A DNA stretch of 64,000 bases, taken from positions 55,246 through 119,245 of the forward strand of contig JAFZBK010000006.1 of NCBI GenBank assembly GCA_017561825.1, written 5' to 3'. The notes below the pieces were generated by a model. The model did not search any database, had not been told where the DNA came from, and was given only the letters and a program-made list of their open reading frames with translations. Origin of the DNA: Prevotella sp. GTDB taxonomy: Bacteria > Bacteroidota > Bacteroidia > Bacteroidales > Bacteroidaceae. Below are positions 62 through 60,977 of the stretch, piece by piece (positions within the stretch are counted from its first letter, which is position 1; every line of letters begins with the position of its first letter). Both the position numbers and the translations under genes were made by a program.

Positions 62-117
62 TCCCTTTGACCGAGTCCCTTTGACCGTGTCCCTTTGACC
101 TCCTTCCTCCTTACTCC
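62..117. repeat. heptamer-type array (14-bp super-unit)
   Basis: Three copies of a 14-bp unit (TCCCTTTGACCGAG, then TCCCTTTGACCGTG, then TCCCTTTGACCTCC) followed by TTCCTCCTTACTCC, i.e. a multiple of the 7-bp period seen elsewhere in the window. It overlaps the stop codon of the minus-strand kinase gene. Confidence 0.85.
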
Positions 118-1079
118 GCAATCCCCCTCCTCTTGGAGGGGCTAGGGGTGGCTCCATGAAATGCAACAAGCCCTTCCAAAGGGCTTTTGGCCACCTTGCT
201 GAGGGTGTAGCCTTCTTCTGTTGCAACCTCCTGCAGCAGTTCGCGGTAATGATAGGCGATGCTACCGATGGCACCGATGCTGAGATCGGGGTGTTGATAC
301 TTTGCAATGTTCTTCCTAAAGAACGCGCGGAAATTATCCTTCACCAGTTCACGCAGCGCTGGCACATCCAGGTGTTCATATATATATATAGAGGTGGAGG
401 CCAAGAAACGGTTTGCCATCGGCTCACGATATACGCGCTGAATGATTTCGGGATAGGTAAGACCGCTCTTCTGCAGGAAATCCTCTTTCATGCTGACAGG
501 GAGTGAGCCTTTGAACAAGGCATTCAGAAAAAGTTTCCCTAACACCGCTCCACTACCTTCATCACCTAAGATATAGCCTAAAGGCGGAATATTCTCTACA
601 ATCTTGGTTCCGTCATAATAGCATGAATTTGAGCCCGTTCCGAGAATACATGCAAGTCCTTCTTGATGCTGACATACTGCCCTTGCTGCACCCAACAGAT
701 CGTTCTCCACCTCAATCTTTTCGGCCTCAGGAAACACCTTCTTCAGCACCTTTTCCACCCCCCCTTTCTTCTCGGGGATGCAGCCGGAACCATAGAAATT
801 GATAATTGAAAATTGAATTTTTGGAGCAGCGAGAGCCATCGTGCTTGCATGTTTGGCCGAGTCGTGACAAAAATCGACGTAGTCAAAATTGAAAATTATC
901 TCCTTACTCCTTTCTCCTTCCTCCTTACTCGGAAAAAGTTGTAAAACAACTTTTTCTATATCCTCCTCCGTCTGATGAACAGGATTAATGCCAGCGGTGG
1001 TGGCACGATGAACGATGGAACCATTCTCTATCCATGCCCAGTCGGTCTTGGTACTTCCGGAATCTGCGATGAGTATCAT
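111..1079 (-). CDS. N-acetylglucosamine kinase-like ATPase (BadF/BadG family)
   Basis: A 322-residue protein of the BadF/BadG/BcrA/BcrD sugar-kinase-type ATPase family, most like GlcNAc kinase: cytosolic phosphorylation of an amino sugar with ATP. The N-terminal phosphate-1 motif DSGSTKTDW (residues 6-14), a central GTGSNS and the following GDEGSG are visible, and the length is usual for the family. Three short repeat arrays lie within or at the end of the gene. They add peptide stretches near FPSKEEGERSKE and KIQFSIINF, and a tail ending SPSKRRGIAE that I infer is not native; the last conserved-looking residues are about SPLEGLVAFHG. The ATG at 1079 is supported by a promoter box 29 bp upstream. 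Transcribed divergently from the MscS gene. Exact sugar substrate is not established. Confidence 0.8.
   Translation of the reverse strand: MILIADSGSTKTDWAWIENGSIVHRATTAGINPVHQTEEDIEKVVLQLFPSKEEGERSKEIIFNFDYVDFCHDSAKHASTMALAAPKIQFSIINFYGSGCIPEKKGGVEKVLKKVFPEAEKIEVENDLLGAARAVCQHQEGLACILGTGSNSCYYDGTKIVENIPPLGYILGDEGSGAVLGKLFLNALFKGSLPVSMKEDFLQKSGLTYPEIIQRVYREPMANRFLASTSIYIYEHLDVPALRELVKDNFRAFFRKNIAKYQHPDLSIGAIGSIAYHYRELLQEVATEEGYTLSKVAKSPLEGLVAFHGATPSPSKRRGIAE
124..151. repeat. GC-rich hairpin element, copy 1
   Basis: CCCCTCC (124-130) pairs with GGAGGGG (135-141) and is followed by the tail CTAGGGGTGG. It forms the 3' end of the kinase reading frame. One of five similar elements in the window. 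Confidence 0.75.
797..820. repeat. heptamer array in the kinase gene
   Basis: AATTGAT, AATTGAA, AATTGAA in tandem, then a T-run. It is read through in frame by the minus-strand kinase gene as part of KIQFSIINF. Confidence 0.75.
901..935. repeat. heptamer array in the kinase gene
   Basis: TCCTTAC, TCCTTTC, TCCTTCC, TCCTTAC, TCGGAAA: five 7-bp units inside the kinase reading frame, encoding part of FPSKEEGERSKE. Confidence 0.8.
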
Positions 1080-1107
1080 ATTTTATAATAAATAAAAAAA
1101 TCCACTG

Positions 1108-1115
1108 CAAATATA
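1108..1115 (-). promoter_or_regulatory. promoter -7 box for the GlcNAc kinase-like gene
   Basis: TATATTTG on the minus strand matches the Bacteroidetes TAnnTTTG -7 consensus, 29 bp before the ATG. It is back to back with the MscS gene promoter. Confidence 0.75.
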
Positions 1116-1137
1116 CACATAATGCGGGAAAAATACG

Positions 1138-1145: not shown

Positions 1146-1164
1146 CAGACAAAAGACGAAGAAT

Positions 1165-7384: not shown

Positions 7385-7576
7385 TTAATACTTTCCTCGC
7401 CGTTTTGTCTGTTTTACATCTACAACAATACCTATAATGATCATGAGCAGGGAGATGATAAGCACGGTATTAGAGCTTGACCATCCCACAATCAGACTCA
7501 CAACCAAAAGAAGGGCACCGGCTATCACCAGTGCCATTCCATAGTGTTCTTTGAATCTTGTTACCAAGGATTGCAT
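7385..7576 (-). CDS. small two-helix membrane protein
   Basis: A 63-residue protein with two predicted transmembrane segments (about MALVIAGALLLVVSLIVG and TVLIISLLMIIIGIVVDV) and a basic C-terminus KQTKRRGKY. The ATG at 7576 is preferred over a TTG two codons upstream. Similar small hypothetical membrane proteins are common near two-component genes in Bacteroidales, but no function can be read. A heptamer array separates it from the response regulator upstream, so cotranscription with rprX-rprY is possible. Confidence 0.6.
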   Translation of the reverse strand: MQSLVTRFKEHYGMALVIAGALLLVVSLIVGWSSSNTVLIISLLMIIIGIVVDVKQTKRRGKY

Positions 7577-7578
7577 TG

Positions 7579-7606
7579 TCAATTTTCAATTTTCAATTTT
7601 CAATTG
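7579..7606. repeat. intergenic heptamer array
   Basis: TCAATTT x3 then TCAATTG, four exact 7-bp steps, filling the gap between the small membrane protein start and the response-regulator stop. Confidence 0.9.
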
Positions 7607-12238: not shown

Positions 12239-12353
12239 ATCTATCAGGTTTTTAGTTGATATTAGACACGTTAATAGGGGTGCTAAGTTACGCATTTTTA
12301 TGAAAACGGCAAAAGAAAAATATGAAAAGGTGTGATTTTTTTAAACTTATTAG

Positions 12354-12361
12354 TAATTTTG
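12354..12361 (+). promoter_or_regulatory. promoter -7 box of the hemW-like gene
   Basis: TAATTTTG, 17 bp before the ATG at 12379. Confidence 0.6.
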
Positions 12362-12516
12362 TGGCCAAATCATACGAAATGGCAGGTCTCTATATCCATA
12401 TTCCTTTTTGTAAAAGCCGGTGCATCTACTGCGCTTTCTACTCAACTACTCAACATGAGCGGATGGAAGAATATGTTGATTCTCTCTGCAAGGAAATGGA
12501 ACTGAGAAAAACTTCA

Positions 12517-12547
12517 CACTCCACATTCCACACTCCACACTCCACAC
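12517..12547. repeat. heptamer array at the hemW frameshift
   Basis: CACTCCA, CATTCCA, CACTCCA, CACTCCA and partial CAC. The reading frame of the conserved protein changes across this tract. Confidence 0.92.
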
Positions 12548-12984
12548 GATCTACCTCGGTGGCGGTACACCTTCACAACTGTCACCTGCCCTCCTTCGTC
12601 GTCTCTTTCATAATATATATAAGGTATATGAGGTGGCGACAGATGCGGAGATCACCATGGAGTGCAACCCCGATGATGTCACGCCCGACTATGCGAAAGT
12701 GATTGGCGAACTGCCTATTAACAGGGTGAGCATGGGTGCCCAGACATTCTCTGATGAGCGTTTGCGCTTCCTTCACCGTCGTCACACCAGCAGTCAGGTC
12801 AAGGAGGCAGTGGAGTTATTACGAAGGAACGGCATCCAGAATATCAGTATCGACCTGATGTTTGGGTTCCCTGGAGAGACACTGCAGGATTGGGAAGAAG
12901 ATATCTGCGAAGCCCTTGCACTGAATGTGGAACATCTGTCAGCCTATTCCTTGATGATTGAGGAAGGAACGGAGCTTTATCGGA

Positions 12985-13016
12985 GGTACGGGAGTACGGG
13001 GGTACGGGAGTTCGAG
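12985..13016. repeat. octamer array in the hemW-like gene
   Basis: GTACGGGA, GTACGGGG, GTACGGGA, GTTCGAGA (period 8, starting at 12986), read in frame as RYGSTGVREFENS. It is related in style to the heptamer arrays but has a different period. Confidence 0.7.
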
Positions 13017-19791: not shown

Positions 19792-19826
19792 TCTTGCTTC
19801 TTGCTTCTCACCTCTCACTTCTCACC
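19792..19826. repeat. intergenic heptamer array
   Basis: TCTTGCT x2, TCTCACC, TCTCACT, TCTCACC: five 7-bp units between the U32 peptidase stop and the zinc-ribbon gene start. Confidence 0.9.
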
Positions 19827-19827: not shown

Positions 19828-21663
19828 CTAATCCTCCCCATACACATTCATCTGACACGCACTGCACTGGAACTCCAAGCGGAACCGTCTGCCATCATCC
19901 AATTTCAGATATAGCGGTTCCTTCCACGGCATCTTCTCTCCCCCTTGGCGCATGCAATAGCCCAGAATGTATTTCAGACAATGCCGACATTGCATGATCA
20001 ACGGATTCTTCACCGGCGAGAGCTCAAAGGCGGGAGCGATCACTTTCAGTCCTTGCTGTTCATAGAATGCGCGGGCCTGACGGTTGGAAATATTGTACAA
20101 GTAACTTCGTTGTGGGTTGACAAGAGAAAGTGGATAGTTAGACTTTTCACTCTCAGTTCTCCATTCTCCACGTTCCACCTCACACGCTCCACTCGTTACA
20201 CTTCTTCTCATCTCCGTCAGCACGCTGGATGGGATAAAGAAGGGGAAGTCGTGGGGTTCGAGATGTACGGAAGTACATTCGTAGGGGGTATTACCGAGTT
20301 TTGTCAGTTGACGGATGATGTTCTCATGCTGCGGTTTCTGCGCGATCTGTTTCTCCATGGGCATGCTGATACAACGAGAACCCATCTGCAGTTCAAAGCC
20401 GTTATCCGTTTCACGCAAGATCATCTCCACGGGAATCTTCCGCACAGCCGTCTTACCAGCCATCACACGCTGAAACTCCTGATCGTTGTTCCTATACAAT
20501 GCCGTTCCCGGCTTGAGATCGGAAGGCATCTGATAAGGGAACAAACGATTCCCTTCCACCCTATTCACACGGAATCCTTCCAATATACGCTTCTCGCCTC
20601 TTCCCCCTTTGAAGAAGCACAAGCCATCACCATTGGCAAACGAGGCTGTTCCTGCCACATTGAATGAATTACCGCGTATCTCCTTTACCTTTCCGACATA
20701 CTCACCTAAGGCTTTGGGAGTATCAGGCGAGAAGATATCCGGTTTACGTCCGAGCAGGAAATAGTCGGTGAAACCCCGATTGAATGTCTTCTGTAAGTTA
20801 GGCGTGAACGAATAGGTACAGGAACCCAAGGAGGCACGTTGGTATTTGTCAGGATGACGAGCAATGATTTCATTCAGTCGCTGACTATAGGCTGCCGTGA
20901 CGTTCTTCACATAGTCGATATCCTTCAGTCTTCCTTCAATCTTGAACGACACAGCCCCTGCCTCCATCAGCTCTTCCAGCATGTCGATGCGACACATATC
21001 TTTCAAAGAAAGCAGATGACGACCACGTTCTATCACGTTCCCGTCAGCATCTTCCAAATCGAAGGGCAACCGACAGAACTGTGCGCAGGCTCCCCTATTG
21101 GCACTCCTGCCGAAACAGTATTGCGATGCATAGCATTGTCCTGAATAACTCACGCACAGGGCACCATGCACGAACACCTCCAGTTCTACGTCGGGAACCG
21201 CCTGATGAATAGCTGCGATCTCTTTCAACGACAGTTCCCGTGCCAGTACCACCCTGCGGAAACCAATGGAACGCAGCCATTGCACCTTCTCGATGGTACG
21301 GTTATCGGTTTGGGTGGAAGCATGAAGGGGAATTGAAAATTTAGAATTGAAAATTGAAAATTGGGTAATAGCCATGTCCTGTACGAGGATGGCATCAACG
21401 CCAATATCGTTCAGATTACTGATCAACTGCTGCGTTTCTTCCAGTTCCTCATCATAGATGATGGTGTTGACAGTGACATACACCTTTGCGCCATACTGAT
21501 GGGCGTAGGTACAGAGTTGTGCAATATCCTCTACTGAGTTACCTGCCGCAACTCGGGCACCGAAGCGTTGTGCTCCGATATACACGGCATCAGCTCCATG
21601 ATCAATGGCCGCGATACCACATTCCAGGTTTTTGGCAGGAGCCAGTAGTTCGATCTTATCCAA
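19828..21663 (-). CDS. U32-family protein (RlhA/TrhP-type RNA hydroxylation)
   Basis: A 611-residue U32 peptidase-family protein with the DUF3656-like C-terminal part. Related enterobacterial proteins hydroxylate 23S rRNA (RlhA) or tRNA (TrhP). The U32 core EVFVHGALCVSYSGQC, then FGRSANRGACAQFCRLPFDL, is intact; further Cys pairs lie at MQCRHCLKYILGYC and FQCSACQMN at the C-terminus. No ATG is available upstream of the conserved LDKIELLAPAKNLECG, so I place the start at the TTG at 21663, which overlaps the metA stop by 8 bp after a GAGGAG. Two heptamer arrays are read in frame: QFSIFNSKFS, and a stretch around GACEVERGEWRTESEKS. Probably translated together with metA. Confidence 0.8.
   Translation of the reverse strand: MDKIELLAPAKNLECGIAAIDHGADAVYIGAQRFGARVAAGNSVEDIAQLCTYAHQYGAKVYVTVNTIIYDEELEETQQLISNLNDIGVDAILVQDMAITQFSIFNSKFSIPLHASTQTDNRTIEKVQWLRSIGFRRVVLARELSLKEIAAIHQAVPDVELEVFVHGALCVSYSGQCYASQYCFGRSANRGACAQFCRLPFDLEDADGNVIERGRHLLSLKDMCRIDMLEELMEAGAVSFKIEGRLKDIDYVKNVTAAYSQRLNEIIARHPDKYQRASLGSCTYSFTPNLQKTFNRGFTDYFLLGRKPDIFSPDTPKALGEYVGKVKEIRGNSFNVAGTASFANGDGLCFFKGGRGEKRILEGFRVNRVEGNRLFPYQMPSDLKPGTALYRNNDQEFQRVMAGKTAVRKIPVEMILRETDNGFELQMGSRCISMPMEKQIAQKPQHENIIRQLTKLGNTPYECTSVHLEPHDFPFFIPSSVLTEMRRSVTSGACEVERGEWRTESEKSNYPLSLVNPQRSYLYNISNRQARAFYEQQGLKVIAPAFELSPVKNPLIMQCRHCLKYILGYCMRQGGEKMPWKEPLYLKLDDGRRFRLEFQCSACQMNVYGED
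20151..20199. repeat. heptamer array in the U32 gene
   Basis: TCTCAGT, TCTCCAT, TCTCCAC, GTTCCAC, CTCACAC, GCTCCAC, TCGTTAC: seven degenerate 7-bp units in frame within the coding sequence. Confidence 0.75.
21331..21365. repeat. heptamer array in the U32 gene
   Basis: AATTGAA, AATTTAG, AATTGAA, AATTGAA, AATTGGG: five units, in frame, adding QFSIFNSKFS just before the conserved IPLHASTQ strand. Confidence 0.92.
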
Positions 21664-26742: not shown

Positions 26743-26774
26743 CTTCATTCCACATTCCACATTCCTCATTCCAC
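26743..26774. repeat. intergenic heptamer array
   Basis: CTTCATT, CCACATT, CCACATT, CCTCATT, CCAC: 7-bp period between the ABC-F and Tyr-rich lipoprotein promoters. Confidence 0.9.
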
Positions 26775-26859
26775 AAAGTAAGGGAAATCCCCCCGCAAGT
26801 TTAGGGTTTTTCCCATCCCGTTTTATGGATATTCCTTTTCAAGCCATAGATTCTTGTCG

Positions 26860-27623: not shown

Positions 27624-29774
27624 ATGAATCCATTTACCAAAAGAATAGCGCAAGTATTAGGACTCCCTGAAAAGGGTGTTGACAACACGTTGGCCCTGCT
27701 GGATGAGGGCTGCACCATCCCCTTCATCTCACGTTACAGAAAGGAACGGACAGGCGGACTCGATGAGGTTCAGATCACCCGCATTGCCGACATGAACGAA
27801 AAACTGAAGGAACTGGTCAAGCGGAAGGAGACCATCATCAAGACCATCACCGAACAGGAGAAGATGACCGATGAGTTGCGGAAACGCATAGATGACTGCT
27901 GGGATAGTACGGAACTGGAGGATATCTACCTGCCCTTCCGTCCGAAACGCAGGACGCGTGCTTCCGTGGCGAAGGAACAAGGACTGGAGCCGCTGGCCAC
28001 TCTTCTGCTCATGCAGCGCGAGCCCAATCCCAAGCAGGCGGCACAACGGTTCGTGAAAGGGGATGTGCCTGATGTGGACGCAGCCTTGAAGGGAGCGCAG
28101 GACATCATTGCCGAGATGGTGAGTGAGGATGAACGCAACCGCAATATCGTCAGACAAGCCTTCCGTCGTTTCTCCACCATCTCCAGTAAGGTGGTGAAGG
28201 CGAAGAAAGACACGGAGGAAGCCGCTAAATATTCCGACTATTTCGACTGGAGCGAACCGCTCAAGCGCTGCTCCTCCCACCGTCTGCTGGCCATGCGCCG
28301 CGGAGAGAGTGAGGGCATCCTGCGTGTGAATATCCAGACGGATGATGAGCAATGCATCTCCCGTCTGCAGAGAAACTACGTGAAAGGATACGGTAAGTGC
28401 CAGTCGTTGGTGGCTGAAGCCGTGGAGGATGGCTACAGACGATTATTAGAGCCGAGCATCGAGACGGAGTTTGCTGCCCTGAGTAAGGAGCAGGCGGATG
28501 ATGAGGCCATTCAGGTGTTCACATCAAACCTCCGTCAGTTGCTGATGGATGCGCCGTTAGGACAGAAAAGGGTGATGGGCGTGGATCCCGGCTTCCGTAC
28601 CGGTTGTAAGGTGGTGTGCCTTGACGCACAGGGTAACCTGCTGCACCATGAGGCCATCTTCCCCCACCCGCCTGTGAACCATCGTATGCAGGCCACCATG
28701 CATGTCATGCAGATGCTCAAGGACTATGATATCGAGGCCGTTGCCATTGGTAACGGAACAGCCAGCAGGGAAACCAAAGAGTTCATGCAAGATGTCATCT
28801 CCTCACTCCCCACTACACACTCCTCACTCCCCACGCCACAAGTATTCGTGGTCAGCGAGGATGGTGCCTCTGTCTATTCCGCTTCCAAGACCGCCCGCGA
28901 GGAGTTCCCTGATGAGGACGTCACGGTGCGCGGAGCCGTCAGTATCGGTCGTAGGTTGATGGATCCGTTGGCTGAGCTGGTGAAGATCGACCCGAAGAGC
29001 ATTGGTGTAGGACAGTATCAGCATGATGTTGACCAAGGAAAGCTGAAGAGGAGTCTTGACCAGACCGTTGAGAGCTGCGTCAACCTTGTGGGTGTGAACC
29101 TCAACACCGCCAGTCACCACCTCCTTACCTACGTCAGCGGATTAGGTCCAACGTTAGCCAAGAACATCGTTACCTACCGCAGCGAGAACGGTCCTTTCTC
29201 ATCCCGGGCCCAGCTCAAGAAAGTACCGCGGTTAGGTCCTTCCGCCTTCGAGCAGTGTGCGGGCTTCCTCCGCATCCCTGGTGCAACCAATCCGCTCGAT
29301 AATTCTGCTGTACATCCCGAGCGCTACCATCTGGTGGAGCAGATGGCGAAGGATCAGCATTGCACCGTCAGACAGCTCATCGAGGAGAAAGACAGAAGGG
29401 AGTCTATCAATATTAATAAGTATGTAACGGATGAGGTGGGCATTCCCACCCTGACGGATATCATGCAGGAGTTGGAAAAGCCCGGACGCGATCCACGAGA
29501 GCAAGTGGAGGTCTTCGAGTTCGACCCGAATGTGAAAGAGGTAGATGACTTGGTAGAAGGGATGATCTTACCTGGTATCGTAACGAATATCACCAACTTC
29601 GGTGCCTTCGTGGATATCGGTGTACATCAAGACGGACTGGTACATATCTCTCAGTTAGCCAATAAGTTCGTAAAAGATCCTAACGAGATTGTTCACCTGC
29701 ATCAGCATGTGCAAGTCAAGGTGGTGGAGATTGATAGGAGAAGGAACCGCATCTCGCTCACCATGCGCATCTAA
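27624..29774 (+). CDS. tex: Tex-family RNA-binding transcription accessory protein
   Basis: A 716-residue Tex protein, an S1-domain nucleic-acid-binding factor linked to transcription and ribosome stability. The Tex N-terminal domain starts at NPFTKRIAQVLGLPEKGVD, with GCTIPFISRYRKERTGGLDE. The YqgF-like nuclease fold contains VDPGFRTGCK and VAIGNGTASRETKEF; helix-hairpin-helix motifs follow (HLLTYVSGLGPTLAKNIV, LGPSAFEQCAGFLRI); the C-terminal S1 domain contains GMILPGIVTNITNFGAFVDI. A heptamer array at 28802-28836 adds about 11 residues (LPTTHSSLPTP) just before the conserved VFVVSEDGAS strand. Otherwise the length and order are standard. Confidence 0.93.
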   Translation: MNPFTKRIAQVLGLPEKGVDNTLALLDEGCTIPFISRYRKERTGGLDEVQITRIADMNEKLKELVKRKETIIKTITEQEKMTDELRKRIDDCWDSTELEDIYLPFRPKRRTRASVAKEQGLEPLATLLLMQREPNPKQAAQRFVKGDVPDVDAALKGAQDIIAEMVSEDERNRNIVRQAFRRFSTISSKVVKAKKDTEEAAKYSDYFDWSEPLKRCSSHRLLAMRRGESEGILRVNIQTDDEQCISRLQRNYVKGYGKCQSLVAEAVEDGYRRLLEPSIETEFAALSKEQADDEAIQVFTSNLRQLLMDAPLGQKRVMGVDPGFRTGCKVVCLDAQGNLLHHEAIFPHPPVNHRMQATMHVMQMLKDYDIEAVAIGNGTASRETKEFMQDVISSLPTTHSSLPTPQVFVVSEDGASVYSASKTAREEFPDEDVTVRGAVSIGRRLMDPLAELVKIDPKSIGVGQYQHDVDQGKLKRSLDQTVESCVNLVGVNLNTASHHLLTYVSGLGPTLAKNIVTYRSENGPFSSRAQLKKVPRLGPSAFEQCAGFLRIPGATNPLDNSAVHPERYHLVEQMAKDQHCTVRQLIEEKDRRESININKYVTDEVGIPTLTDIMQELEKPGRDPREQVEVFEFDPNVKEVDDLVEGMILPGIVTNITNFGAFVDIGVHQDGLVHISQLANKFVKDPNEIVHLHQHVQVKVVEIDRRRNRISLTMRI
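28802..28836. repeat. heptamer array in tex
   Basis: CTCACTC, CCCACTA, CACACTC, CTCACTC, CCCACGC: five 7-bp units read in frame in a loop of the YqgF-like domain. Confidence 0.9.
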
Positions 29775-34321: not shown

Positions 34322-35440
34322 ATGGAAATAGCAAAGATCGGTGAGTTCGGACTGATTGACCGTCTTACCGAAGGAATCAAGCCGCAGAACGTCTCCACCC
34401 TCAAGGGGGTGGGCGACGACTGTGCCGTGATGCACTACCCCGACACGGAGGTGCTGGTAACCACCGACATGCTCATGGAGGGTGTGCATTTCGACCTTAC
34501 CTATATCGATCTGCAGCATTTAGGGTATAAGTCGGCCATGGTGAATATCTCGGATATCTTCGCCATGAACGGAATACCCAGGCAGATGACCGTCAGCTTG
34601 GCACTCAGCAAACGGTTCTCGGTAGAAGACATGGAACTGTTCTACAGCGGACTGCGGATGGCGTGCGACAAATGGAATGTTGACATCGTGGGCGGAGATA
34701 CCACGTCATCACTCACGGGCTTGGCCATCAGCATCACCTGTATCGGCGAGGCACGCAAGGAGGATATCGTGTACCGCAATGGGGCGCAGGATACCGATCT
34801 GATCTGCGTGAGTGGCGATCTGGGGGCAGCCTATATGGGACTGCAGCTGCTGGAGCGTGAGAAGACTGTCTATTACCAGCAGATCGACGAGCTCAACCAG
34901 AAGGTGAAGGCGGCCAAGGCCGACAGTACCTACGAGCAGAAGAAAGAGATGTTCCAGAAGCAGTGGGCACTGACCAAGGATTTCCAGCCTGATTTCTCTG
35001 GTAAGGAATACCTGCTGCAACGACAGCTGAAGCCTGAGGCACGCGGAGATATCATCCGTCAGCTGCGCGAGGCCAATATCCGTCCTACGTCCATGATGGA
35101 CATCAGCGACGGTCTGTCGAGCGAGCTGCTGCACATCTGCAAGCAGTCTGGCACAGGTTGTCGTATCTACGAGAAGAATATACCCATCGACTACCAGACA
35201 GCCGTGATGGCTGAGGAGCTGAATATGAATGTCACCACCTGCGCCATGAACGGAGGTGAGGACTATGAGCTGCTCTTCACGGTGCCCATTGGTGATCACG
35301 AGAAGATCGAGGCCATGGAAGACGTCAAGCTCATCGGACATGTCACACGCAAGGAGCTGGGCATGATGCTGGTGAGCCGCGACGGTCAGGAGTTTGAGAT
35401 TACTGCACAGGGGTGGAACCCGCTTAGAGGTGAGAAGTGA
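34322..35440 (+). CDS. thiL: thiamine-monophosphate kinase
   Basis: A 372-residue ThiL that converts thiamine phosphate to thiamine pyrophosphate. Visible motifs: VGDDCAVM, TTDMLMEGVHFDLTY, GYKSAMVNISDIFAMNG and NVDIVGGDTTSS for metal and ATP binding, MDISDGLSSELLHI and MNGGEDYELLFTV in the second half. It is longer than the usual 310-345 residues because of a charged, helical stretch (about 185-235, QQIDELNQKVKAAKADS onward). The stop TGA at 35438-35440 lies inside a heptamer array, so the last residues (RGEK) are repeat-derived. Last gene of sppA-lpxK-punA-thiL. Confidence 0.92.
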   Translation: MEIAKIGEFGLIDRLTEGIKPQNVSTLKGVGDDCAVMHYPDTEVLVTTDMLMEGVHFDLTYIDLQHLGYKSAMVNISDIFAMNGIPRQMTVSLALSKRFSVEDMELFYSGLRMACDKWNVDIVGGDTTSSLTGLAISITCIGEARKEDIVYRNGAQDTDLICVSGDLGAAYMGLQLLEREKTVYYQQIDELNQKVKAAKADSTYEQKKEMFQKQWALTKDFQPDFSGKEYLLQRQLKPEARGDIIRQLREANIRPTSMMDISDGLSSELLHICKQSGTGCRIYEKNIPIDYQTAVMAEELNMNVTTCAMNGGEDYELLFTVPIGDHEKIEAMEDVKLIGHVTRKELGMMLVSRDGQEFEITAQGWNPLRGEK

Positions 35441-35496
35441 GAAGTGAGAAGTACGATGTAATGGGAAGAAGTTTGAAGTTAGAGGTACGAAGTATT
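35427..35496. repeat. long heptamer array at the thiL stop
   Basis: GAGGTGA, GAAGTGA x2, GAAGTAC, GATGTAA, TGGGAAG, AAGTTTG, AAGTTAG, AGGTACG, AAGTATT: about ten degenerate 7-bp units. The thiL stop codon is part of the second unit. Confidence 0.85.
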
Positions 35497-39625: not shown

Positions 39626-39660
39626 AATTCTTCATTCTTCATTCTTAATTCTTAATTTCT
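39626..39660. repeat. heptamer array at the M6 protease stop
   Basis: AATTCTT, CATTCTT x2, AATTCTT, AATTTCT: five units. The stop codon of the M6 protease and its last residues (RIKNEE) are made of this array. Confidence 0.9.
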
Positions 39661-41236
39661 TCCTCCCTTCATACAGATAAATCCCCGACTTGCTCGGCTT
39701 CCCCGCAAGTCGGCGCCCATCAATCGTGTACCAGTTCTCCCATTGACCTTCGACCGAGTCCCTTTGACCTTCGACCTTCGACCTTTGACCATCATCTTGA
39801 AGCGAAGCCTCATTAATGCCCGTTGTTTCCATCGTGAAATCAAAGGATACGGTACCATCATCAGCAACACGTATATTGGAAATCGATTTCCCGAATTGCG
39901 TACTGCCTTCGGCATTTTCGTTGAACATCACCACAGTGGGAACAGAAGTATCTGTCAGGCAATCGTTCTCAGTCTCTGTAGCGCTGTCGCACCAGGGATA
40001 GGGAGAAGTGCTGAGATGCCTGTTGTACAACAACTGTTCCTGATCGACATATTGCAGCTCGTCCTTTTCGTGCGGATAGAGTTTGTCCCAATCTTCGTAG
40101 TCCAGATTGTCGGCATGAACAATGTCGTATCGAAAATGATTATCCTTTACATTGATCGTGTTATTGCGCCAGCTCTTTTCAGAGTAATCGATATGGAAGA
40201 TGAGGAGTCCGCTGCCAGGAATAGCCGCATCCCATCCCTTGCGCTGACGGTTCTCCAAGAGCAGATACTCGGTGTCGGTATGGTGGATGATGTACGACGT
40301 ACCGCCGTCTGAAAGCGATTCCATGCCACTGATGGTTGTGGTCGCATCAAGTTCCACTGGTGTCGCCCAGCCCAGATACATCTTCTCCATGGCCGTAAGG
40401 TTGGGCGGGCACCAGCCCCAGTTCGTGTAATTCCCTCCGTCCATGAGGTCGAACTCGTCGCAGACCGAGAAGAATGATGAACTAGATGTAGGATATACAT
40501 CGGGCAGAGCGAGGCAGTGGGAATACTCATGACAGATGGTACCGATACCGTTCTTCATCCCATTTCCCCATAGTTCACCGCTACTCGAGGAGAAGTTTAT
40601 CTTCAGTCCGTCGGGAGTCGTATGTTCTCTTATCAATCCCGTATTGGGCCAGATAAAGCCCGACGCCTGGTTTCCCGAAAGACTGGCAAACACCACCACC
40701 ACCTGATCAATGTAACCGTTATCATCCCAGTCGTAAGGTGTATAATCCATGTCAGAATGCTCGGCTATCATCATTTCGATAGCATCCCCTATTTCATCGT
40801 CACCATAATTATAAGCCCCCTTTTTCTTGGCGGTACCCTGTACCTGGTAAGGCCCCATGATGTCAAACTGTAGATTGCAAATACCGCCCGACTGGTCGCG
40901 GAAGTAGTCGGCTACACAGCCAGGACCGATGCCTTCATTGTAGCCCTGCTCGTTGAAGAGCCGGTCGTAGTATTCATGGGGGTTCTCGCAACTGAACGTG
41001 GAGTCGCTGAACTCCATCAGTATAACCAGTTGCCTATAGATACGCGTGGCATCCCATTCCTTGGGGGTAAACAGTATCGAATAATCGTCGCTGCGGGTTT
41101 CTGGCTCGCCGCCCAGGTTCCTCATACAACCCATGCGCCTTGGGAACAGATCATCGTTCTGTGCCTGTACGTTCATGGTGACCATCATAGTGGTTATGAC
41201 AATCAGCAATAATTTTCTTATCACTTGTATTTTCAT
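39632..41236 (-). CDS. secreted M6-family metalloprotease
   Basis: A 534-residue secreted protease of the M6 (immune inhibitor A-like) family. The start MKIQVIRKLLL at 41236 gives a signal peptide ending VQAQ. The zinc site HEYSHCLALPD (HExxHxxxxxD) is intact, with a downstream DLMDGGNYTNWGWCPPNL Met-turn-like region. Calcium-like acidic loops (DYTPYDWDDNGYID) precede it. The C-terminus WYTIDGRRLAGKPSKSG and following strand resemble a sorting tail. Just before this tail a heptamer array adds about 16 residues (GQRSKVEGQRDSVEGQ), and the extreme C-terminus derives from a second array. Secreted, likely for digestion of protein. Confidence 0.88.
   Translation of the reverse strand: MKIQVIRKLLLIVITTMMVTMNVQAQNDDLFPRRMGCMRNLGGEPETRSDDYSILFTPKEWDATRIYRQLVILMEFSDSTFSCENPHEYYDRLFNEQGYNEGIGPGCVADYFRDQSGGICNLQFDIMGPYQVQGTAKKKGAYNYGDDEIGDAIEMMIAEHSDMDYTPYDWDDNGYIDQVVVVFASLSGNQASGFIWPNTGLIREHTTPDGLKINFSSSSGELWGNGMKNGIGTICHEYSHCLALPDVYPTSSSSFFSVCDEFDLMDGGNYTNWGWCPPNLTAMEKMYLGWATPVELDATTTISGMESLSDGGTSYIIHHTDTEYLLLENRQRKGWDAAIPGSGLLIFHIDYSEKSWRNNTINVKDNHFRYDIVHADNLDYEDWDKLYPHEKDELQYVDQEQLLYNRHLSTSPYPWCDSATETENDCLTDTSVPTVVMFNENAEGSTQFGKSISNIRVADDGTVSFDFTMETTGINEASLQDDGQRSKVEGQRDSVEGQWENWYTIDGRRLAGKPSKSGIYLYEGRKKLRIKNEE
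39743..39791. repeat. heptamer array in the M6 protease gene
   Basis: TTGACCT, TCGACCG, AGTCCCT, TTGACCT, TCGACCT, TCGACCT, TTGACCA: seven units read in frame. The units match the array at 62-117. Confidence 0.92.
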
Positions 41237-43231: not shown

Positions 43232-43330
43232 GAAAAGAGACTCACTTTTGTATGGTTTCAAAGGGTGATGTGATAATAACAACGGGACTATACCATAAGG
43301 AATAAGGGATAAAACCACCGTTTTCACATC

Positions 43331-53028: not shown

Positions 53029-55365
53029 CTAAAGCTTGATCGTAGTTGCTGTGCCATTGTAATCCACAGTCTGTGTGGTTCCGTTGGGTAATACGAGTGT
53101 GAACTTTCTCGACTGCAACATACCCGGATAAGAACCCTGACGAGCACCGATGGTGAGTGTGCTTTGCTTGTCCATCCATACAAAAGGAATGGTAGCATAG
53201 ACACCCTTCTCGTAGTTGTAGCTGTCACCCTCATCCTCATAAAGCGTGAACTGACCGTCGGCTCCAGGATAGACACGAATTTCCAAGTTATCCCATGCCT
53301 TCTCTCCCACGTACTGCATCTCAGGGCCGAGTGGCAGAATGCTTCCTGCTCGTACGAACATCGGTACTTGTTGCAATGTGGTATTACAGTGGATATTCTG
53401 ACCACCCTTATAACGTTTTCCCGTCCAGAAGTCGTACCAGTCAGTTCCCTTGGGCAGGTACTTCGTAGCCATCTTCATATCATTCCAATTAATTGTCAAT
53501 TGTTCATTGTCAATTGTCAATTGATTCTTATCCCATCCCGTCATGGCATTGGTACGGATAATCTTCTCTTCGGTGTATTGCGGGTCAACGATGGGGGCAG
53601 CAAGGATGCTACGACCGAACATGAACTCATCCGTCATGTTCCATACATTCTTGTCTGAAGCGAAGTCGGCAAACAGCGGACGCATATAACTGTCGTTATT
53701 ACTCGTCACCTGCCAGGCGGTACTATATAAATAAGGTATCAGACGGTAGCGCAGACGGATGGTCTTCTCGATGGCATCATAAACGGGCTCGCCCTTCTTA
53801 CCAAACTGCCAGATCTCACGGGGCGCGTCGGCACCATGACTGCGGAACACAGGACAGAACAGTCCGTACTGCATCCAGCGCACATAGAGCTCCTGGAACT
53901 GCGGATTCTTGGGGGCTGAGCCTGCACCCTTGGTGTTGTAGGAGCTACAGAAGAAACCACCGATATCGGTATTGAAGTTAGGATCACCCGTCAGCGTGAA
54001 ACTGAGTCCTGCGGGAACCTGCTTCCTCAGCATATCCCACGAGGAGTTCACATCACCGCTCCACATGTTCGAGCCGTAGTGCTGCTGTCCTGCAAAGGCG
54101 GAGCGGGTCATGATGAAGACACGCTTCTCGCTGGAATTTCCGGATTCCTTACGCTGAGCCTGATACACACCACGCACGGTTTCCAAGGGGAAGGCGTTGC
54201 GCTGAGAGCGCCAGGTGCCACCATACACCTGATGTTCGTAATCGCTCTCACGTGGATTGAAGAAATCTGGATCGGTAGAGTCCATCCACCAGGCATCCGT
54301 ACCGTAGTCGTATAGTCTCTTGAGGTATTTCCAGTAGATATCACGGGCCTCAGGACTGAAAGCGTCATATACCTTCACGCCAGATGGATAGTCTCTCATC
54401 GGCGGCCAGACATGTGAGATACCACTCTGCGGCCAAGTCTCGAAAGGCATGAGCAAACCCTTCGCATCAAGCTCGCGGAACTGCTGGGTCTGCGGACCAA
54501 AGCTGGCCCAGATGGAGATCATGAAATGAGCGTGTTTCTGATGAACGTTCTTGATGAGCTGCTTGCCATTGGAGAAATCCTCTGACAGGAAATCCATGGC
54601 ATTCCACAGATAGTTACTTCCCCAGTACTGCCAGTCCTGAATGATGCCATCGAGCGGCACCTGCAGCTCACGGTACTTGTCAACAATGCTCTCCGTCTCT
54701 GCGGCTGTCTTGTAACGCTCTTTCGACTGCCAGAAACCGAAGGTCCACAACGGGAACATCGGCACATCACCACTGAGGTAACGCATCTGGGCAATCACAC
54801 CATCAGCCGAACCGCCATACATGAAGTAGTAGTCGATACCCTCGCCCACCTCGGAAGTGAACGACATACCGTTGGCATCATCATCAAACTGCGTGGGTGA
54901 ATAGTTCTCCCAGTAGATGCCCCAGCCCTTGATGCTCTGCAACACGTTCTGGAAATCCTCCAGGTTCGACTGCTCCATACGCTTGTGTTCACCACGACGG
55001 TTCATCTTTCCGTTCTGAATGGTACCTAATCCGTAGATAGCCTCATCCTTATCCAGCACAAACGACTGTCGCACTTTGGTGATATCATGACTCTTCTCGC
55101 GCAACAACACCTGTCCTTTTGCGGTCAGGAATGTCAGACAGCCTGTCTTTGGGTCCTGACGTACCGTCAGCTCCCCACTCGACTGCTCATTGCCCTTACG
55201 ACTGATGGTTACGTCTTCGGGCTTCGCGGTTATCACAAGTGTCTTGGTGGGCTGTCCTTTGACCACATGGACAATTCTGGGCGTAACAAAGGTTACCTTT
55301 ACCTGTTGCGACCAGCAGACTGCACTTGTCATGATCAGAGACATGACTAGAAAGATCTTCTTCAT
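53029..55365 (-). CDS. secreted GH31 glycoside hydrolase
   Basis: A 778-residue family 31 enzyme, an alpha-glucosidase or alpha-xylosidase. Signal peptide MKKIFLVMSLIMTSAVCWSQ (ATG at 55365). After the N-terminal beta domain the barrel shows VPLDGIIQDWQYWG, the nucleophile Asp in WWMDSTDPDF (about residue 362), the acid/base Asp in MWSGDVNSSWDML (about 438) and GGFFCSSY. Downstream lie beta domains, with a DUF5110-type end (IRVYPGADGQFTLYEDEGD). A heptamer array adds NQLTIDNEQLTINWND ahead of the KYLPKGTDWYDFWTGKRY segment. It follows the Lrp gene by 43 bp on the same strand with no clear promoter, so it may depend on that transcript. Confidence 0.92.
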   Translation of the reverse strand: MKKIFLVMSLIMTSAVCWSQQVKVTFVTPRIVHVVKGQPTKTLVITAKPEDVTISRKGNEQSSGELTVRQDPKTGCLTFLTAKGQVLLREKSHDITKVRQSFVLDKDEAIYGLGTIQNGKMNRRGEHKRMEQSNLEDFQNVLQSIKGWGIYWENYSPTQFDDDANGMSFTSEVGEGIDYYFMYGGSADGVIAQMRYLSGDVPMFPLWTFGFWQSKERYKTAAETESIVDKYRELQVPLDGIIQDWQYWGSNYLWNAMDFLSEDFSNGKQLIKNVHQKHAHFMISIWASFGPQTQQFRELDAKGLLMPFETWPQSGISHVWPPMRDYPSGVKVYDAFSPEARDIYWKYLKRLYDYGTDAWWMDSTDPDFFNPRESDYEHQVYGGTWRSQRNAFPLETVRGVYQAQRKESGNSSEKRVFIMTRSAFAGQQHYGSNMWSGDVNSSWDMLRKQVPAGLSFTLTGDPNFNTDIGGFFCSSYNTKGAGSAPKNPQFQELYVRWMQYGLFCPVFRSHGADAPREIWQFGKKGEPVYDAIEKTIRLRYRLIPYLYSTAWQVTSNNDSYMRPLFADFASDKNVWNMTDEFMFGRSILAAPIVDPQYTEEKIIRTNAMTGWDKNQLTIDNEQLTINWNDMKMATKYLPKGTDWYDFWTGKRYKGGQNIHCNTTLQQVPMFVRAGSILPLGPEMQYVGEKAWDNLEIRVYPGADGQFTLYEDEGDSYNYEKGVYATIPFVWMDKQSTLTIGARQGSYPGMLQSRKFTLVLPNGTTQTVDYNGTATTIKL
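53489..53523. repeat. heptamer array in the GH31 gene
   Basis: TTAATTG, TCAATTG, TTCATTG, TCAATTG, TCAATTG: five units read in frame as QLTIDNEQLTI. Confidence 0.93.
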
Positions 55366-58857: not shown

Positions 58858-58909
58858 TGCAACTCGGTTGCAAAAAGATCCCATCCAGGTCTTTTGCAAC
58901 TGGGTTGCA
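58858..58909 (+). promoter_or_regulatory. twin TGCAAC-N3-GTTGCA operators of the P-type ATPase gene
   Basis: Two perfect 15-bp palindromes, TGCAACTCGGTTGCA (58858-58872) and TGCAACTGGGTTGCA (58895-58909), centres 37 bp apart. The inner halves can also pair (TTGCAAAAAGA with TCTTTTGCAA). The second covers the -33 region of the promoter at 58922-58929. The form suits a dimeric metal regulator such as a Fur/Zur-type protein; the regulator gene is not in this window. Confidence 0.8.
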
Positions 58910-58921
58910 TCGTTTTTGTCG

Positions 58922-58929
58922 TACCTTTG
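58922..58929 (+). promoter_or_regulatory. promoter -7 box of the P-type ATPase gene
   Basis: TACCTTTG, 26 bp before the ATG at 58956 and 12 bp after the second operator. Confidence 0.75.
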
Positions 58930-58955
58930 CACCAGAATAAACAAAAAATAGGATT

Positions 58956-60977
58956 ATGTCACATCATCACCACGACAGCGAATGCTGTCACGAGCACGAA
59001 CACCATCATGAGCATCATCATGAAGGTTCGTTAAAAAGTAAGATCATCCGCATCATCATTGCCGCCATCTTGCTGATAGCCGCTGTTCTCATTGAGAAGA
59101 ACAGTAGTCTATCCACCTGGCAGCTCCTGCTTGTCTTTCTGATACCTTATTTATTTATAGGGTTCGACACGTTGAAGGAAGCTGCTGAAGGAATCTTCCA
59201 TGGCGACCTGTTCAACGAACATTTCCTGATGTCGATAGCCACCATCGGTGCCTTGCTCATCGGATTCCTGCCAGGAGCAGAGACGCAGTTCCCCGAGGCG
59301 GTCTTTGTCATGCTCTTCTTCCAGGTAGGCGAACTCTTTGAAGGCTATGCCGAAGGGAAGAGTCGTGAGAGTATTACCCACCTGATGGATATCCGACCGG
59401 ATATCGTACATATAGCCACCACTGACCCCTCCATAGAGGAGGGGGAACTGAAGGATGTGGAGCCTGAAATGGTGGAGGTGGGCTCTATCATCTTGGTCCG
59501 CCCTGGTGAGAAGGTGCCGTTAGATGGCGTGGTTCTGGAGGGTAGTTCGGCCCTTAACACCGTAGCGCTGACGGGTGAGAGTATGCCGCGCGACATTACT
59601 GTTGGCGACGAAGTGATCTCTGGATGCATCAACTTATCTGGTGTGATAAGGGTTCGCACCACGAAGCCTTTCAGCGAGAGCAACGTTTCCAAGATCATCA
59701 GTCTGGTGGAGAATGCCAGCGAGCATAAGTCGAAGAGTGAGACCTTCATCACTCGCTTTGCCCGCATCTACACCCCCATCGTAGTGTTCGCTGCCATCGC
59801 TCTGGCCCTCATACCCCCCGCTTTATCATTTGTCATTTATCATTTGTCCTTTAGCGAATCATTCCCTACCTGGCTCTACCGCGCCCTGATGTTCCTTGTA
59901 GTATCCTGTCCTTGTGCATTGGTCATCAGCGTTCCCCTCACCTTCTTCGGTGGTATCGGCGGAGCATCTCGTCACGGCATCCTCATCAAGGGAGCCAACT
60001 ACATGGATATCCTGGCCAAGGTGAAAACCGTTGTCTTTGACAAGACCGGTACCCTCACCCACGGACAGTTCGCCGTAGAAGCCGTCCACGGAAATTCAGA
60101 ACAAAAGACTATTAACTGTCAATTGTCCACTATCAATTGTCAATTATTACATCTCGCTGCTCACGTCGAGCATTTCTCCTCCCACCCCATCGCAGCCGCT
60201 CTTCGTGATGCCTTCCCTGAAGCAGCACATGACGAGTGCGAGGTGAGCGACATCAAGGAGTTCGCCGGTCATGGTATTCAGGCCCGAGTAGGTAACGATA
60301 TCGTTTGTGTGGGTAACACGAAGATGATGGACAGCTTGGGAATGGCTTGGCACGACTGTCATCTACCGGGAACCATCATTCATGTAGCCATCAACGGGGA
60401 GTATGCTGGACATATCGTCATCAACGACATGATCAAGGATGACAGTGCCGAAGCCATCCGACAACTGAAGGAGTTGGGAGTGGAAAGAACTGTTATGCTG
60501 ACGGGTGACCGCCAAGGCGTGGCCGACCATGTGGCAAAGGAATTAGGTATCACTGAATACCATGCCGAACTGCTCCCTGCCGATAAAGTCACCTTCGTTG
60601 AGCAGGAGTTATCTCACCCCTCACCTCTCACCTCTCACCTCTCAAAGGTGGCCTTTGTGGGCGACGGCATCAACGATGCTCCTGTACTGGCCCGCGCAGA
60701 TATCGGTATTGCCATGGGAGGATTAGGAAGTGATGCGGCCATTGAAGCGGCAGACGTTGTACTTATGGACGACCAGCCATCGAAGATTGCTCAGGCCATC
60801 CAAATTGCTCGTCGCACCATTGCCATTGCCCGACAGAACGTGTGGTTCGCCATTGATGTTAAGATCGCCGTACTCATCCTCGCCACCTTCGGTCTTAGCA
60901 CCATGTGGATGGCCGTCTTTGCCGACGTAGGTGTCACCGTACTGGCCGTGCTCAACGCTATGCGAGCCATGCGGTAA
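58956..60977 (+). CDS. Zn/Cd/Pb-type P1B ATPase (ZntA-like)
   Basis: A 673-residue heavy-metal-exporting P-type ATPase. The N-terminus is a metal-binding His/Cys tail (SHHHHDSECCHEHEHHHEHH) in place of a folded HMA domain. Transmembrane helices follow; the actuator motif is ALTGESMPRD, the ion site VVSCPCALVISVP (CPC, as in Zn/Cd pumps), the phosphorylation site VFDKTGTLTHG, the N-domain HP in FSSHPIAAAL, and the hinge VGDGINDAPVLARAD. Three heptamer arrays are read in frame at loops: LSFVIYHLSF before the CPC helix, KTINCQLSTINCQLL in the nucleotide domain, and LSHPSPLTSHLS before the hinge. Two palindromic operators upstream point to metal-dependent control. Confidence 0.92.
   Translation: MSHHHHDSECCHEHEHHHEHHHEGSLKSKIIRIIIAAILLIAAVLIEKNSSLSTWQLLLVFLIPYLFIGFDTLKEAAEGIFHGDLFNEHFLMSIATIGALLIGFLPGAETQFPEAVFVMLFFQVGELFEGYAEGKSRESITHLMDIRPDIVHIATTDPSIEEGELKDVEPEMVEVGSIILVRPGEKVPLDGVVLEGSSALNTVALTGESMPRDITVGDEVISGCINLSGVIRVRTTKPFSESNVSKIISLVENASEHKSKSETFITRFARIYTPIVVFAAIALALIPPALSFVIYHLSFSESFPTWLYRALMFLVVSCPCALVISVPLTFFGGIGGASRHGILIKGANYMDILAKVKTVVFDKTGTLTHGQFAVEAVHGNSEQKTINCQLSTINCQLLHLAAHVEHFSSHPIAAALRDAFPEAAHDECEVSDIKEFAGHGIQARVGNDIVCVGNTKMMDSLGMAWHDCHLPGTIIHVAINGEYAGHIVINDMIKDDSAEAIRQLKELGVERTVMLTGDRQGVADHVAKELGITEYHAELLPADKVTFVEQELSHPSPLTSHLSKVAFVGDGINDAPVLARADIGIAMGGLGSDAAIEAADVVLMDDQPSKIAQAIQIARRTIAIARQNVWFAIDVKIAVLILATFGLSTMWMAVFADVGVTVLAVLNAMRAMR
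59822..59856. repeat. heptamer array 1 in the P-type ATPase gene
   Basis: TTTATCA, TTTGTCA, TTTATCA, TTTGTCC, TTTAGCG: five units, in frame, in the segment before the CPC helix. Confidence 0.88.
60112..60146. repeat. heptamer array 2 in the P-type ATPase gene
   Basis: TTAACTG, TCAATTG, TCCACTA, TCAATTG, TCAATTA: five units, in frame, encoding TINCQLSTINCQL. Confidence 0.9.
60612..60646. repeat. heptamer array 3 in the P-type ATPase gene
   Basis: TCTCACC, CCTCACC, TCTCACC, TCTCACC, TCTCAAA: five units, in frame, encoding SHPSPLTSHLS. Confidence 0.92.

What the first reader, a model, noticed from the sequence alone, without database searches (positions are those of the whole stretch)
62..60646. 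Window-wide family of degenerate 7-bp tandem arrays, many inside genes
Seen directly: at least 17 arrays with exact period 7 (62, 797, 901, 7579, 12517, 19792, 20151, 21331, 26743, 28802, 35427, 39626, 39743, 53489, 59822, 60112, 60612). Many are five units (35 bp). Units fall into sequence classes (TCAATTG/TCAATTT; CACTCCA/TCTCACC/CTCACTC; TTGACCT/TCGACCT), yet the period is constant while the sequence varies. About eleven lie inside or at the ends of conserved genes and are translated in frame. Cyanobacterial STRR heptanucleotide repeats are the nearest analogue I know; I do not know of a described mechanism in Bacteroidales. Constant period with varied unit suggests an active generating process (templated synthesis or slippage by a dedicated enzyme) rather than simple copying.
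Basis: partly seen in the sequence, partly recalled or inferred. Interest (0 to 1): 0.82.

Follow-up and report, generated by a model that had tools for sequence, protein, structure and literature searches.

The report
Seven-base repeats filling bacterial gene junctions
This bacterium carries short patches of seven-base tandem repeats, mostly placed where its genome tolerates change (between genes and in variable protein loops); such repeats are a known kind of bacterial DNA, but these have a preferred length and, in the main type, one freely varying base per unit, for which I found no tested explanation.

Summary
Tandem Repeats Finder reports 16 of the 17 listed arrays; 12 pass a stricter test and none appears in 10 shuffles. 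In 985 kb of the same genome, period 7 gives 155 segments, period 8 gives 20. Heptanucleotide repeats (cyanobacterial STRRs, TAACTGA of Beggiatoaceae, GGGNATC of Xanthomonas) are an established kind, and the unit AATTNTC occurs in several phyla, so I file this as a new variant of a known kind. Unusual details: the commonest length is 32 bp (five 4-bp blocks), with a sharp drop above five; in the main class six bases are almost fixed and the seventh nearly free; density is 16-fold higher outside genes, typically from one stop codon to the next start codon; in-gene arrays sit in variable loops that other species fill mostly with other unit classes. Between near-identical phages the core of all blocks can differ together, or the spacer can be unrelated. 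Best-supported mechanism: seven-base slippage turnover plus purifying selection. A dedicated templating enzyme is not excluded, but RVT_1 reverse-transcriptase genes do not track array abundance (this genome has one; six array-rich relatives show none).

The parts
62..117 (+). array: 14-bp unit TCCCTTTGACCGAG x2.8 running into CCTCCTT x2.7
796..817 (-). AAATTGA x3.1 (TCAATTN class on - strand), inside ORF 111-1079(-), no Pfam match
900..930 (+). CTCCTTH x4.4, antisense inside ORF 111-1079(-), followed by a hairpin AAAAAGTTGT/ACAACTTTTT
7575..7605 (+). ATTGTCAATTTTCAATT... 4.4 units, 4 bp beyond the stop codon of a response-regulator gene (7610-8308, -)
12511..12547 (+). ACTCCAC-type x5.3 in the hemW-like gene; the reading frame differs on its two sides
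19792..19826 (+). TCTTGCT passing into TCTCACY, between the stop of the U32 gene and the start of the next gene
20151..20190 (+). degenerate TCTCCAY-type array, antisense, in frame in U32 peptidase loop 2 (weak: not reported by TRF)
21331..21363 (-). TCAATTN class x4.7, in frame in U32 peptidase loop 1
26746..26775 (+). CATTCCA x4.3, intergenic by my gene calls
28799..28840 (+). CTCCCCA-type x5.1, in frame in a variable-length loop of Tex
35426..35452 (-). YTCTCAC class x3.9; holds the stop of the AIRS-domain gene 34322-35440(+)
39627..39662 (+). ATTCTTM x5, antisense; holds the stop of the M6-like gene and the called start of the next gene
39743..39790 (+). TTGACCT/TCGACCT array (period 21 x2.3; 39761-39790 period 7 x4.3), antisense, in frame near the end of the M6-like gene
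53491..53523 (+). AATTGTC x4.7, antisense, in frame in a GH31 gene
59822..59853 (+). TTTRTCA x4.6, in frame, P-type ATPase loop 1
60112..60145 (+). degenerate TGTCAAT-type x4.1, in frame, P-type ATPase loop 2
60612..60644 (+). TCTCACC x4.7, in frame, P-type ATPase loop 3 just before VAFVGDGIND

Best explanation
These are heptanucleotide tandem arrays of the STRR / long-SSR kind. I infer that they are born and continually rewritten by slippage of the copying machinery in seven-base (sometimes eight-base) steps, at sites throughout the chromosome. [quoted passage not shown] Shown here: the excess of period 7, the location bias, the preferred size, the single free base in the main unit class, the reuse of one loop by different arrays in different species, and the difference in arrays between near-identical phages. 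Inferred: that slippage is the generator and that position is mostly tolerance rather than function. Why seven is preferred, why growth stops near five blocks and why one base is free are not explained by this model.
For: Excess of period 7 over other periods. Period-8 segments exist, 9 of 20 with the same AATT block, as a relaxed stepping process predicts. Density is 16-fold higher outside CDS, and the aligned in-gene arrays (Tex, U32, P-type ATPase, hemW) lie in variable loops. Other species carry period-7 sequence, mostly of other unit classes, in the same loops: 3 of 28 scored for hemW, 6 of 29 for U32 loop 2, 5 of 29 for ATPase loop 1, 1 of 29 for ATPase loop 3, 0 of 29 for Tex. Concerted change: at one phage junction contigs about 97% identical have AATT in all five blocks in one and AACT in all five in the other. 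16 of 58 contig ends tested lie within 100 bp of a period-7 segment, against 2.4% of interior 100-bp windows, which suggests variation within the population. The same unit occurs in several phyla. Literature: heptanucleotides are reported as the most abundant long-SSR class in most genomes, with polymerase slippage proposed (Mrazek 2007, seen only as cited in PMC4679880 and PMC4692102); 7-nt indels between close Cyanothece strains are reported for TAACTGA repeats (PMC4679880).
Against: Block counts for AATT.TC in the 985-kb sample are 2:19, 3:9, 4:13, 5:25, 6:2, 7:2; plain slippage predicts a falling distribution without a ceiling. Within arrays the free base shows no order: matches at lags 1, 2 and 3 are 0.395, 0.390 and 0.429, and the within-array order test gives p = 0.53, whereas stepwise duplication predicts decay with lag. 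Homogenisation should also homogenise the free base, yet adjacent units differ there in 71 of 134 comparisons against 18 of 875 at the other six positions. At phage junction A the non-array alleles of the closest contigs are a different spacer without an obvious seed. I saw no clean +7/-7 event in the pairs.
Confidence: 0.55

Rival explanations
1. Arrays are selected cis-acting elements. Six of seven bases per unit are read by a protein or by the ribosome at gene junctions, and the seventh is free. They would work as a translation-initiation or intercistronic spacer (or, as inverted pairs, as a terminator-like hairpin).
For: Near-identical phages: ungapped orthologous arrays differ at 41 of 136 free-base sites, 15 of 988 other array sites and 267 of 5139 flank sites (43 of the 63 pairs, which are not independent). 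Adjacent free bases differ mostly by transitions (90 of 132 mismatches in named Bacteroidetes loci, 43 of 74 in G000, 124 of 209 in viral contigs), as expected of neutral drift. Arrays fill stop-to-start gaps, and the sense strand is purine-rich in 59 of 82 codirectional cases (p = 9e-5). Inverted partners within 150 bp for 18 of 140 G000 arrays, direct partners for 0. PMC4679880 proposes translational regulation for TAACTGA repeats.
Against: Many unit classes coexist in one genome (18 by my clustering). Both orientations occur. 39 of 146 arrays lie inside CDS, about evenly on either strand. The core of all blocks can differ in concert, and the phage junctions have no array in close relatives.
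Confidence: 0.22
2. Dedicated templated synthesis: an enzyme copies a six-base template, adds one untemplated base, realigns and repeats for about four cycles, leaving a patch of fixed size.
For: Six nearly fixed bases plus one nearly free base in the main class; sharp ceiling at five blocks, also in viral contigs that were retrieved with a 4-block pattern (4:75, 5:58, 6:4, 7 or more:5); first and last bases coincide with block edges in 27 and 31 of 47 arrays; no order of the free base within arrays; whole spacers differ between phage alleles.
Against: Units vary between arrays, so no single template serves; period-8 versions exist; RVT_1 has no match in six array-rich draft genomes (G000 itself has one); adjacent free bases differ mainly by transitions, which points to later mutation; no candidate gene or template RNA was found (only RVT_1 and MutS_V were searched).
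Confidence: 0.1
3. Arrays spread as mobile cassettes or by gene conversion between junctions.
For: Two different junctions in related phages carry the same 36-nt array including its edges, apart from one base (I did not find both in one contig). Inverted partners share unit and often variable bases. Some inverted pairs flank a related centre with TGAGATACA. In named loci 16 of 181 arrays also have a direct partner, and 5 of 54 in congeners.
Against: In G000, identical 5-block arrays of the main class are near chance (3 pairs, 1.8 expected), the printed 12-bp flanks look unrelated, and direct partners are 0 of 140.
Confidence: 0.08
4. Chance low complexity or an assembly artefact.
For: The genome is a draft in 69 contigs and contig ends fall at arrays.
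Against: 0 in 10 shuffles; reversed pattern 0 against 172; the same arrays in isolate genomes and several phyla.
Confidence: 0.01

Closest known systems
Cyanobacterial heptanucleotide STRRs (Mazel 1990, recalled; a Calothrix case is mentioned in a passage of PMC4692102)
   Same: Tandem 7-bp units, several unit types per genome, mostly intergenic (recalled); the 32-bp AATT(NTCAATT)4 pattern itself occurs in Okeania, Symploca, Chamaesiphon and Sphaerospermopsis
   Different: In the nine cyanobacterial AATTNTC arrays examined the seventh base is nearly uniform (3 of 28 adjacent mismatches against 74 of 128 in this genome), and arrays can be far longer (239 bp in Symploca)
TAACTGA repeats of Beggiatoaceae, Cyanobacteria and five Bacteroidetes (MacGregor 2015, PMC4679880)
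   Different: One unit sequence there; many classes here and no tandem TAACTGA in the 985-kb sample; arrays in internal loops of several conserved proteins and a free base are not described in the sections I read (3, 10, 15, 23)
GGGNATC / GGGGA(C/T)T repeats of Xanthomonas and Nostoc (Rehm 2015, PMC4692102, passages read)
   Same: Heptamers with a degenerate position, most commonly four units in Xanthomonas, same genes in two related species with changed length and sequence, some inverted pairs
   Different: G-rich and quadruplex-forming there; G-poor on one strand here
Phase-variable contingency repeats (recalled)
   Same: A 7-bp unit inside a gene shifts frame on each gain or loss; hemW is split at its array
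   Different: No unit-number variation was demonstrated, and the host genes identified here are mostly housekeeping or metabolic

Membership tests
Heptanucleotide STRR / long simple sequence repeats | Head-to-tail units of 7 bp in excess over chance | tested here: met
Heptanucleotide STRR / long simple sequence repeats | Many dispersed arrays, enriched outside genes | tested here: met
   146 arrays classified, 107 intergenic or straddling a gene edge although 90% of bases are coding; density ratio 16
Heptanucleotide STRR / long simple sequence repeats | Unit-number variation between strains | tested here: inconclusive
   No same-species genome was compared; indirect sign from contig ends; phage alleles vary in unit class and presence
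Heptanucleotide STRR / long simple sequence repeats | Open-ended length distribution expected of slippage | tested here: not met
   Mode at five blocks, sharp drop at six. This is a prediction of the mechanism, not a defining trait of the family
TAACTGA repeat family | Tandem TAACTGA units | tested here: not met
   0 tandem pairs on either strand in 985 kb, 53 single copies
Reverse-transcriptase-templated repeats (telomerase-like) | A reverse transcriptase gene in array-rich genomes | tested here: not met
   No RVT_1 match in G007, G018, G022, G027, G033, G057 (incomplete drafts; RTs outside RVT_1 not tested); one match in G000
Transposon / MITE | Near-identical copies with conserved ends | tested here: not met
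   Identical arrays of the main class near chance; a minority of inverted pairs with a shared centre remains open
Phase-variable contingency locus | On/off frame switching by unit number | tested here: inconclusive
   hemW-like gene is out of frame across its array; no variants seen

The most novel reading that the evidence does not exclude
A genome-wide patch-making process writes DNA in seven-base steps: six bases set by the neighbouring unit and one free, stopping near 32 bp. It writes in place of existing sequence rather than merely inserting, and so keeps supplying new intergenic spacers and new protein-loop sequence across Bacteroidales, phages and several other phyla.
Probability: 0.15. 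Interest if true: 0.82.

Novelty: new variant of a known kind. Interest (0 to 1): 0.52.

Why it matters
A heptanucleotide excess in bacteria has been in print since 2007 (as cited in PMC4679880 and PMC4692102), with a mechanism proposed but, in the passages I read, not tested. Genomes with many arrays of preferred size, one free base per unit in the main class and matched phage alleles make the question testable: is the unit set by polymerase slippage, by selection or by a dedicated enzyme? The arrays also repeatedly supply loop sequence to conserved proteins (Tex, U32 peptidase, HemW, a P-type ATPase), a concrete case of protein sequence arising from DNA repeat dynamics.

Tried and rejected
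Rejected on evidence. Chance. Copy-and-paste of whole arrays in the bacterium (main class only). RVT_1 reverse transcriptase as a necessary partner. Loss of MutS: MutS_V matches in 59 of 60 genomes; the one without is array-rich G022, 81% complete. A third, shorter (~600 aa) MutS_V protein looked rarer in array-rich genomes, but this roughly follows distance from G000 (by eye) and G027 contradicts it, so it was dropped. Replication-strand bias: pyrimidine strand on + against - was 30/33 in stretches of positive GC skew and 35/30 in negative ones. Hairpins beside arrays as part of one element: enriched (stem of 6 or more on the right in 8 of 72, on the left in 4 of 72, control 2 of 432), but the control was mostly coding DNA and terminators may explain it. 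Inverted pairs only at convergent genes: 3 of 9 pairs examined. tRNA anticodon or T-loops (7 nt) as templates: considered on paper only; several unit classes do not fit.

Led nowhere. Paper searches for Prevotella or Bacteroides with heptanucleotide terms returned nothing, nor did the STRR wording; one search listed five papers that use the term STRR (listing only); the Mrazek 2007 paper is not held; PMC4060949 had one irrelevant passage.

Limits. Gene calls are my own ORF scorer, not a standard caller. Array thresholds vary between calls (9, 10, 12, 13; in the scripts). Block counts by regular expression require a perfect core, which understates core variation. The phage comparison counts are not independent, and 20 of 63 pairs (gapped or with more than four core changes) were set aside before the count. 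Of the 58 contig ends, three were added because I already held them and two of these were known to end in arrays; without them it is 14 of 55 (10 of 40 starts of C1-C40, 4 of 15 ends); a few other array-bearing starts were also known beforehand, but C1-C40 were taken as a block. Sets retrieved with a 4- or 5-block pattern bias the lower block counts. A few loops were cut short by the regular expression (e.g. L085, L092, L103 at ATPase site 3).


Full report
OBSERVATION. Tandem Repeats Finder reports 16 of 17. A stricter score finds 12 segments in the window and none in 10 dinucleotide-preserving shuffles. The window is G000:C51:55246-119245 of a 2.98-Mb draft in 69 contigs. The three-unit pattern TCAATTNTCAATTNTCAATT matches 87 + 85 times in that genome (overlapping matches counted), while the same pattern read backwards matches 0 times. 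In 985 kb sampled from it, period 7 gives 155 segments against 20 for period 8 and 0-12 for the other periods up to 12. Of 100 genomes searched (own and 99 relatives), 44 have the pattern. Counts inside the genus run from 0 to 145 in the relatives, and some relatives match the backward pattern instead, so the unit class differs by species.

ANATOMY. The commonest array length is 32 bp (32 of 142 arrays; 31-33 bp: 54 of 142). It reads as five 4-bp blocks joined by four 3-bp linkers, e.g. AATT(NTCAATT)x4, or CATT(CCACATT)x4. For the AATT.TC class the block counts are 2:19, 3:9, 4:13, 5:25, 6:2, 7:2, and the first and last bases fall on block edges in 27 and 31 of 47 arrays. In the main class one base of the seven is nearly free: adjacent units differ there in 71 of 134 comparisons and in 18 of 875 at the other six positions. 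Several other classes also have one most variable position (YTCTYRC 29/50; CTCCTTH 12/27; CATTCCW 10/34); some, such as the TTTTAAC cluster, do not. The free base has no order within arrays (within-array permutation p = 0.53) but is more alike within than between arrays (p = 0.0025). It changes mainly by transitions: 43 of 74 adjacent mismatches in this genome, 90 of 132 in named Bacteroidetes loci, 124 of 209 in viral contigs. Of 20 period-8 segments, 9 contain the same block with a 4-bp linker.

LOCATION. With my own gene calls (90% coding), 146 arrays fall as 39 inside CDS, 57 straddling a CDS edge and 50 intergenic. Array bases are 16 times denser outside CDS. Of 515 codirectional junctions of up to 300 bp, 64 carry an array. 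Typically the array starts within a few bases of the upstream stop codon, or contains it, and often ends close to the next ATG. The sense strand is the purine-rich one in 59 of 82 codirectional cases (p = 9e-5). There is no bias with GC skew. In G000, 18 of 140 arrays have an inverted partner within 150 bp, none a direct partner and none a reversed-control match; in congener loci the counts are 10, 5 and 0 of 54, and in named genome loci 45, 16 and 3 of 181. In four orthologous U32 loops (L053, L057, L063, L073) the coding loop itself shows both inverted arms, each with a different unit class (read by eye from the sequences).

IN GENES. The arrays in Tex, the U32 peptidase (two), the P-type ATPase (three), the GH31 gene and the M6-like gene are translated in frame. 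Alignments show that the Tex, U32 and ATPase arrays lie in loops whose length varies between species; the GH31 and M6-like genes were not aligned. Other species have period-7 sequence (score 10 or more) in the same loops, mostly of other unit classes: 3 of 28 loops scored for hemW, 6 of 29 for U32 loop 2, 5 of 29 for ATPase loop 1 (one of them, L086, of the window's own class), 1 of 29 for ATPase loop 3 and 0 of 29 for Tex. One ATPase orthologue (L084) carries a perfect CAACTCT array yet its site is 3 bp shorter than the commonest length (54 against 57), so the array seems to have taken the place of other sequence rather than only adding to it; a previously shorter loop cannot be excluded. The hemW-like gene is the exception: its N-terminal part and its C-terminal part lie in different frames on the two sides of the 12511-12547 array, while the 29 aligned orthologues are continuous there.

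PHAGE ALLELES. Near-identical viral contigs give the closest comparisons. At junction A, 5 of 32 loci carry the array between stop and ATG in two versions that differ, within the array, only at free bases (for example TAATTTTCAATTTTCAATTCTCAATTATCAATTAGA), five close relatives have a different 26-nt spacer (counting the stop codon), and the 22 more distant loci have still other spacers or almost none. At junction B, 2 of 11 loci carry an array. At a third junction, AATT in all five blocks corresponds to AACT in all five blocks of contigs about 97% identical. Over 43 ungapped array pairs (of 63 found; 20 with gaps or more than four core changes set aside, the AATT/AACT case among them; not independent), free bases differ at 41 of 136 sites, the other array bases at 15 of 988 and flanks at 267 of 5139. 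The arrays of junctions A and B, found in related but different contigs, are the same over 36 nt apart from one base.

SPREAD. The free base is nearly uniform in the nine cyanobacterial arrays (3 of 28 adjacent mismatches), the six of Acidobacteria (1 of 19) and two of non-Bacteroidales Bacteroidetes (0 of 13), but free in Firmicutes (14 of 33) and the mixed remainder (14 of 27), so it is not peculiar to Bacteroidales.

ACTIVITY. 16 of 58 contig ends tested (of 138) have a period-7 segment within 100 bp, against 225 of 9312 interior 100-bp windows (p = 4e-13); without three ends added afterwards it is 14 of 55. The simplest reading is that arrays vary within the sequenced population. The same effect may hide very long arrays, so the upper tail of the length distribution is a lower bound.

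MECHANISM. Slippage in seven-base steps with purifying selection accounts for the period, the location, the period-8 relatives, the concerted core difference and the presence in several phyla. It does not account for the ceiling at five blocks, the free base or the lack of order. Selection on a six-base core accounts for the free base and its transition bias, but not for the many classes, both orientations and in-gene copies. A dedicated enzyme (six templated bases plus one) accounts for the size and the free base, but not for unit diversity; RVT_1, the one enzyme family tested for it, has no match in six array-rich genomes, though G000 has one. I rank them 0.55, 0.22 and 0.10.

LITERATURE. 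PMC4679880 (abstract, introduction, sections 10, 15 and 23 read) describes TAACTGA heptamer repeats in Beggiatoaceae, Cyanobacteria and five Bacteroidetes, mostly near start codons, some overlapping upstream stop codons or inside ORFs, and cites Mrazek 2007 for heptanucleotides being the most abundant class and for a polymerase-contact explanation. PMC4692102 (passages read) describes GGGNATC-type repeats with a degenerate position, a mode of four units and inverted pairs. Searches found no paper on such repeats in Prevotella or Bacteroides, and one search found only PMC4679880 for Bacteroidetes, within the library searched.

Noticed in passing
window 12322-13517: hemW-like gene (Radical_SAM + HemN_C) is split into two reading frames at the 12511-12547 array; aligned orthologues are continuous. 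Could be a broken gene, a population variant or a switchable locus.
   Followed up: partly
window 43328-43390 and 23 other places in the G000 sample: A second family of constant period: about two to four copies of a 22-bp unit, often palindromic (e.g. TTCCCAACGTGGGAA), 23 of 24 wholly intergenic by my gene calls, with several unrelated unit sequences (a 25th segment is explained by period 7).
   Followed up: partly
L119:6212-6324, L006:8228-8345, L111:5480-5606, L112:7823-7925, L022:1297-1460: Inverted array pairs flank a centre of some 40-60 bp that in several cases contains a related GAGATACAG- or GTATCTC-like sequence, although the arms belong to different unit classes.
   Followed up: partly
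ends of G000 contigs (e.g. C9, C12, C15, C28, C36, C37): Assembly breaks coincide with heptamer arrays: 16 of 58 ends tested.
   Followed up: yes
viral loci L402, L416 (junction A) and L428-L431, L433 (junction B): A similar hairpin spacer (CCCAGCCGTTCTCGGCTGGG-type) sits at two different gene junctions in related phages, so spacers are exchanged in other forms too.
   Followed up: no
L090, L095, L109 (ATPase loops); L028, L032, L042 (Tex loop): Another G/C-rich, palindrome-like repeat (coding LEGAGGG / SPFGEGAG-type peptides) seems to have entered the same variable loops.
   Followed up: no
G007 stretches L144, L145, L147; G037 stretches L140, L142: Several arrays lie directly next to a TAccTTTG-like element (Bacteroidetes -7 promoter motif, recalled), i.e. 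in a promoter spacer or upstream region.
   Followed up: no
genus-wide: A ~600-aa MutS_V-domain protein looks rarer in array-rich congeners, but this roughly follows distance from G000 and G027 contradicts it.
   Followed up: partly
window 61516-62172: 69-bp tandem repeats, probably a leucine-rich-repeat (BspA-like, recalled) surface protein gene.
   Followed up: no
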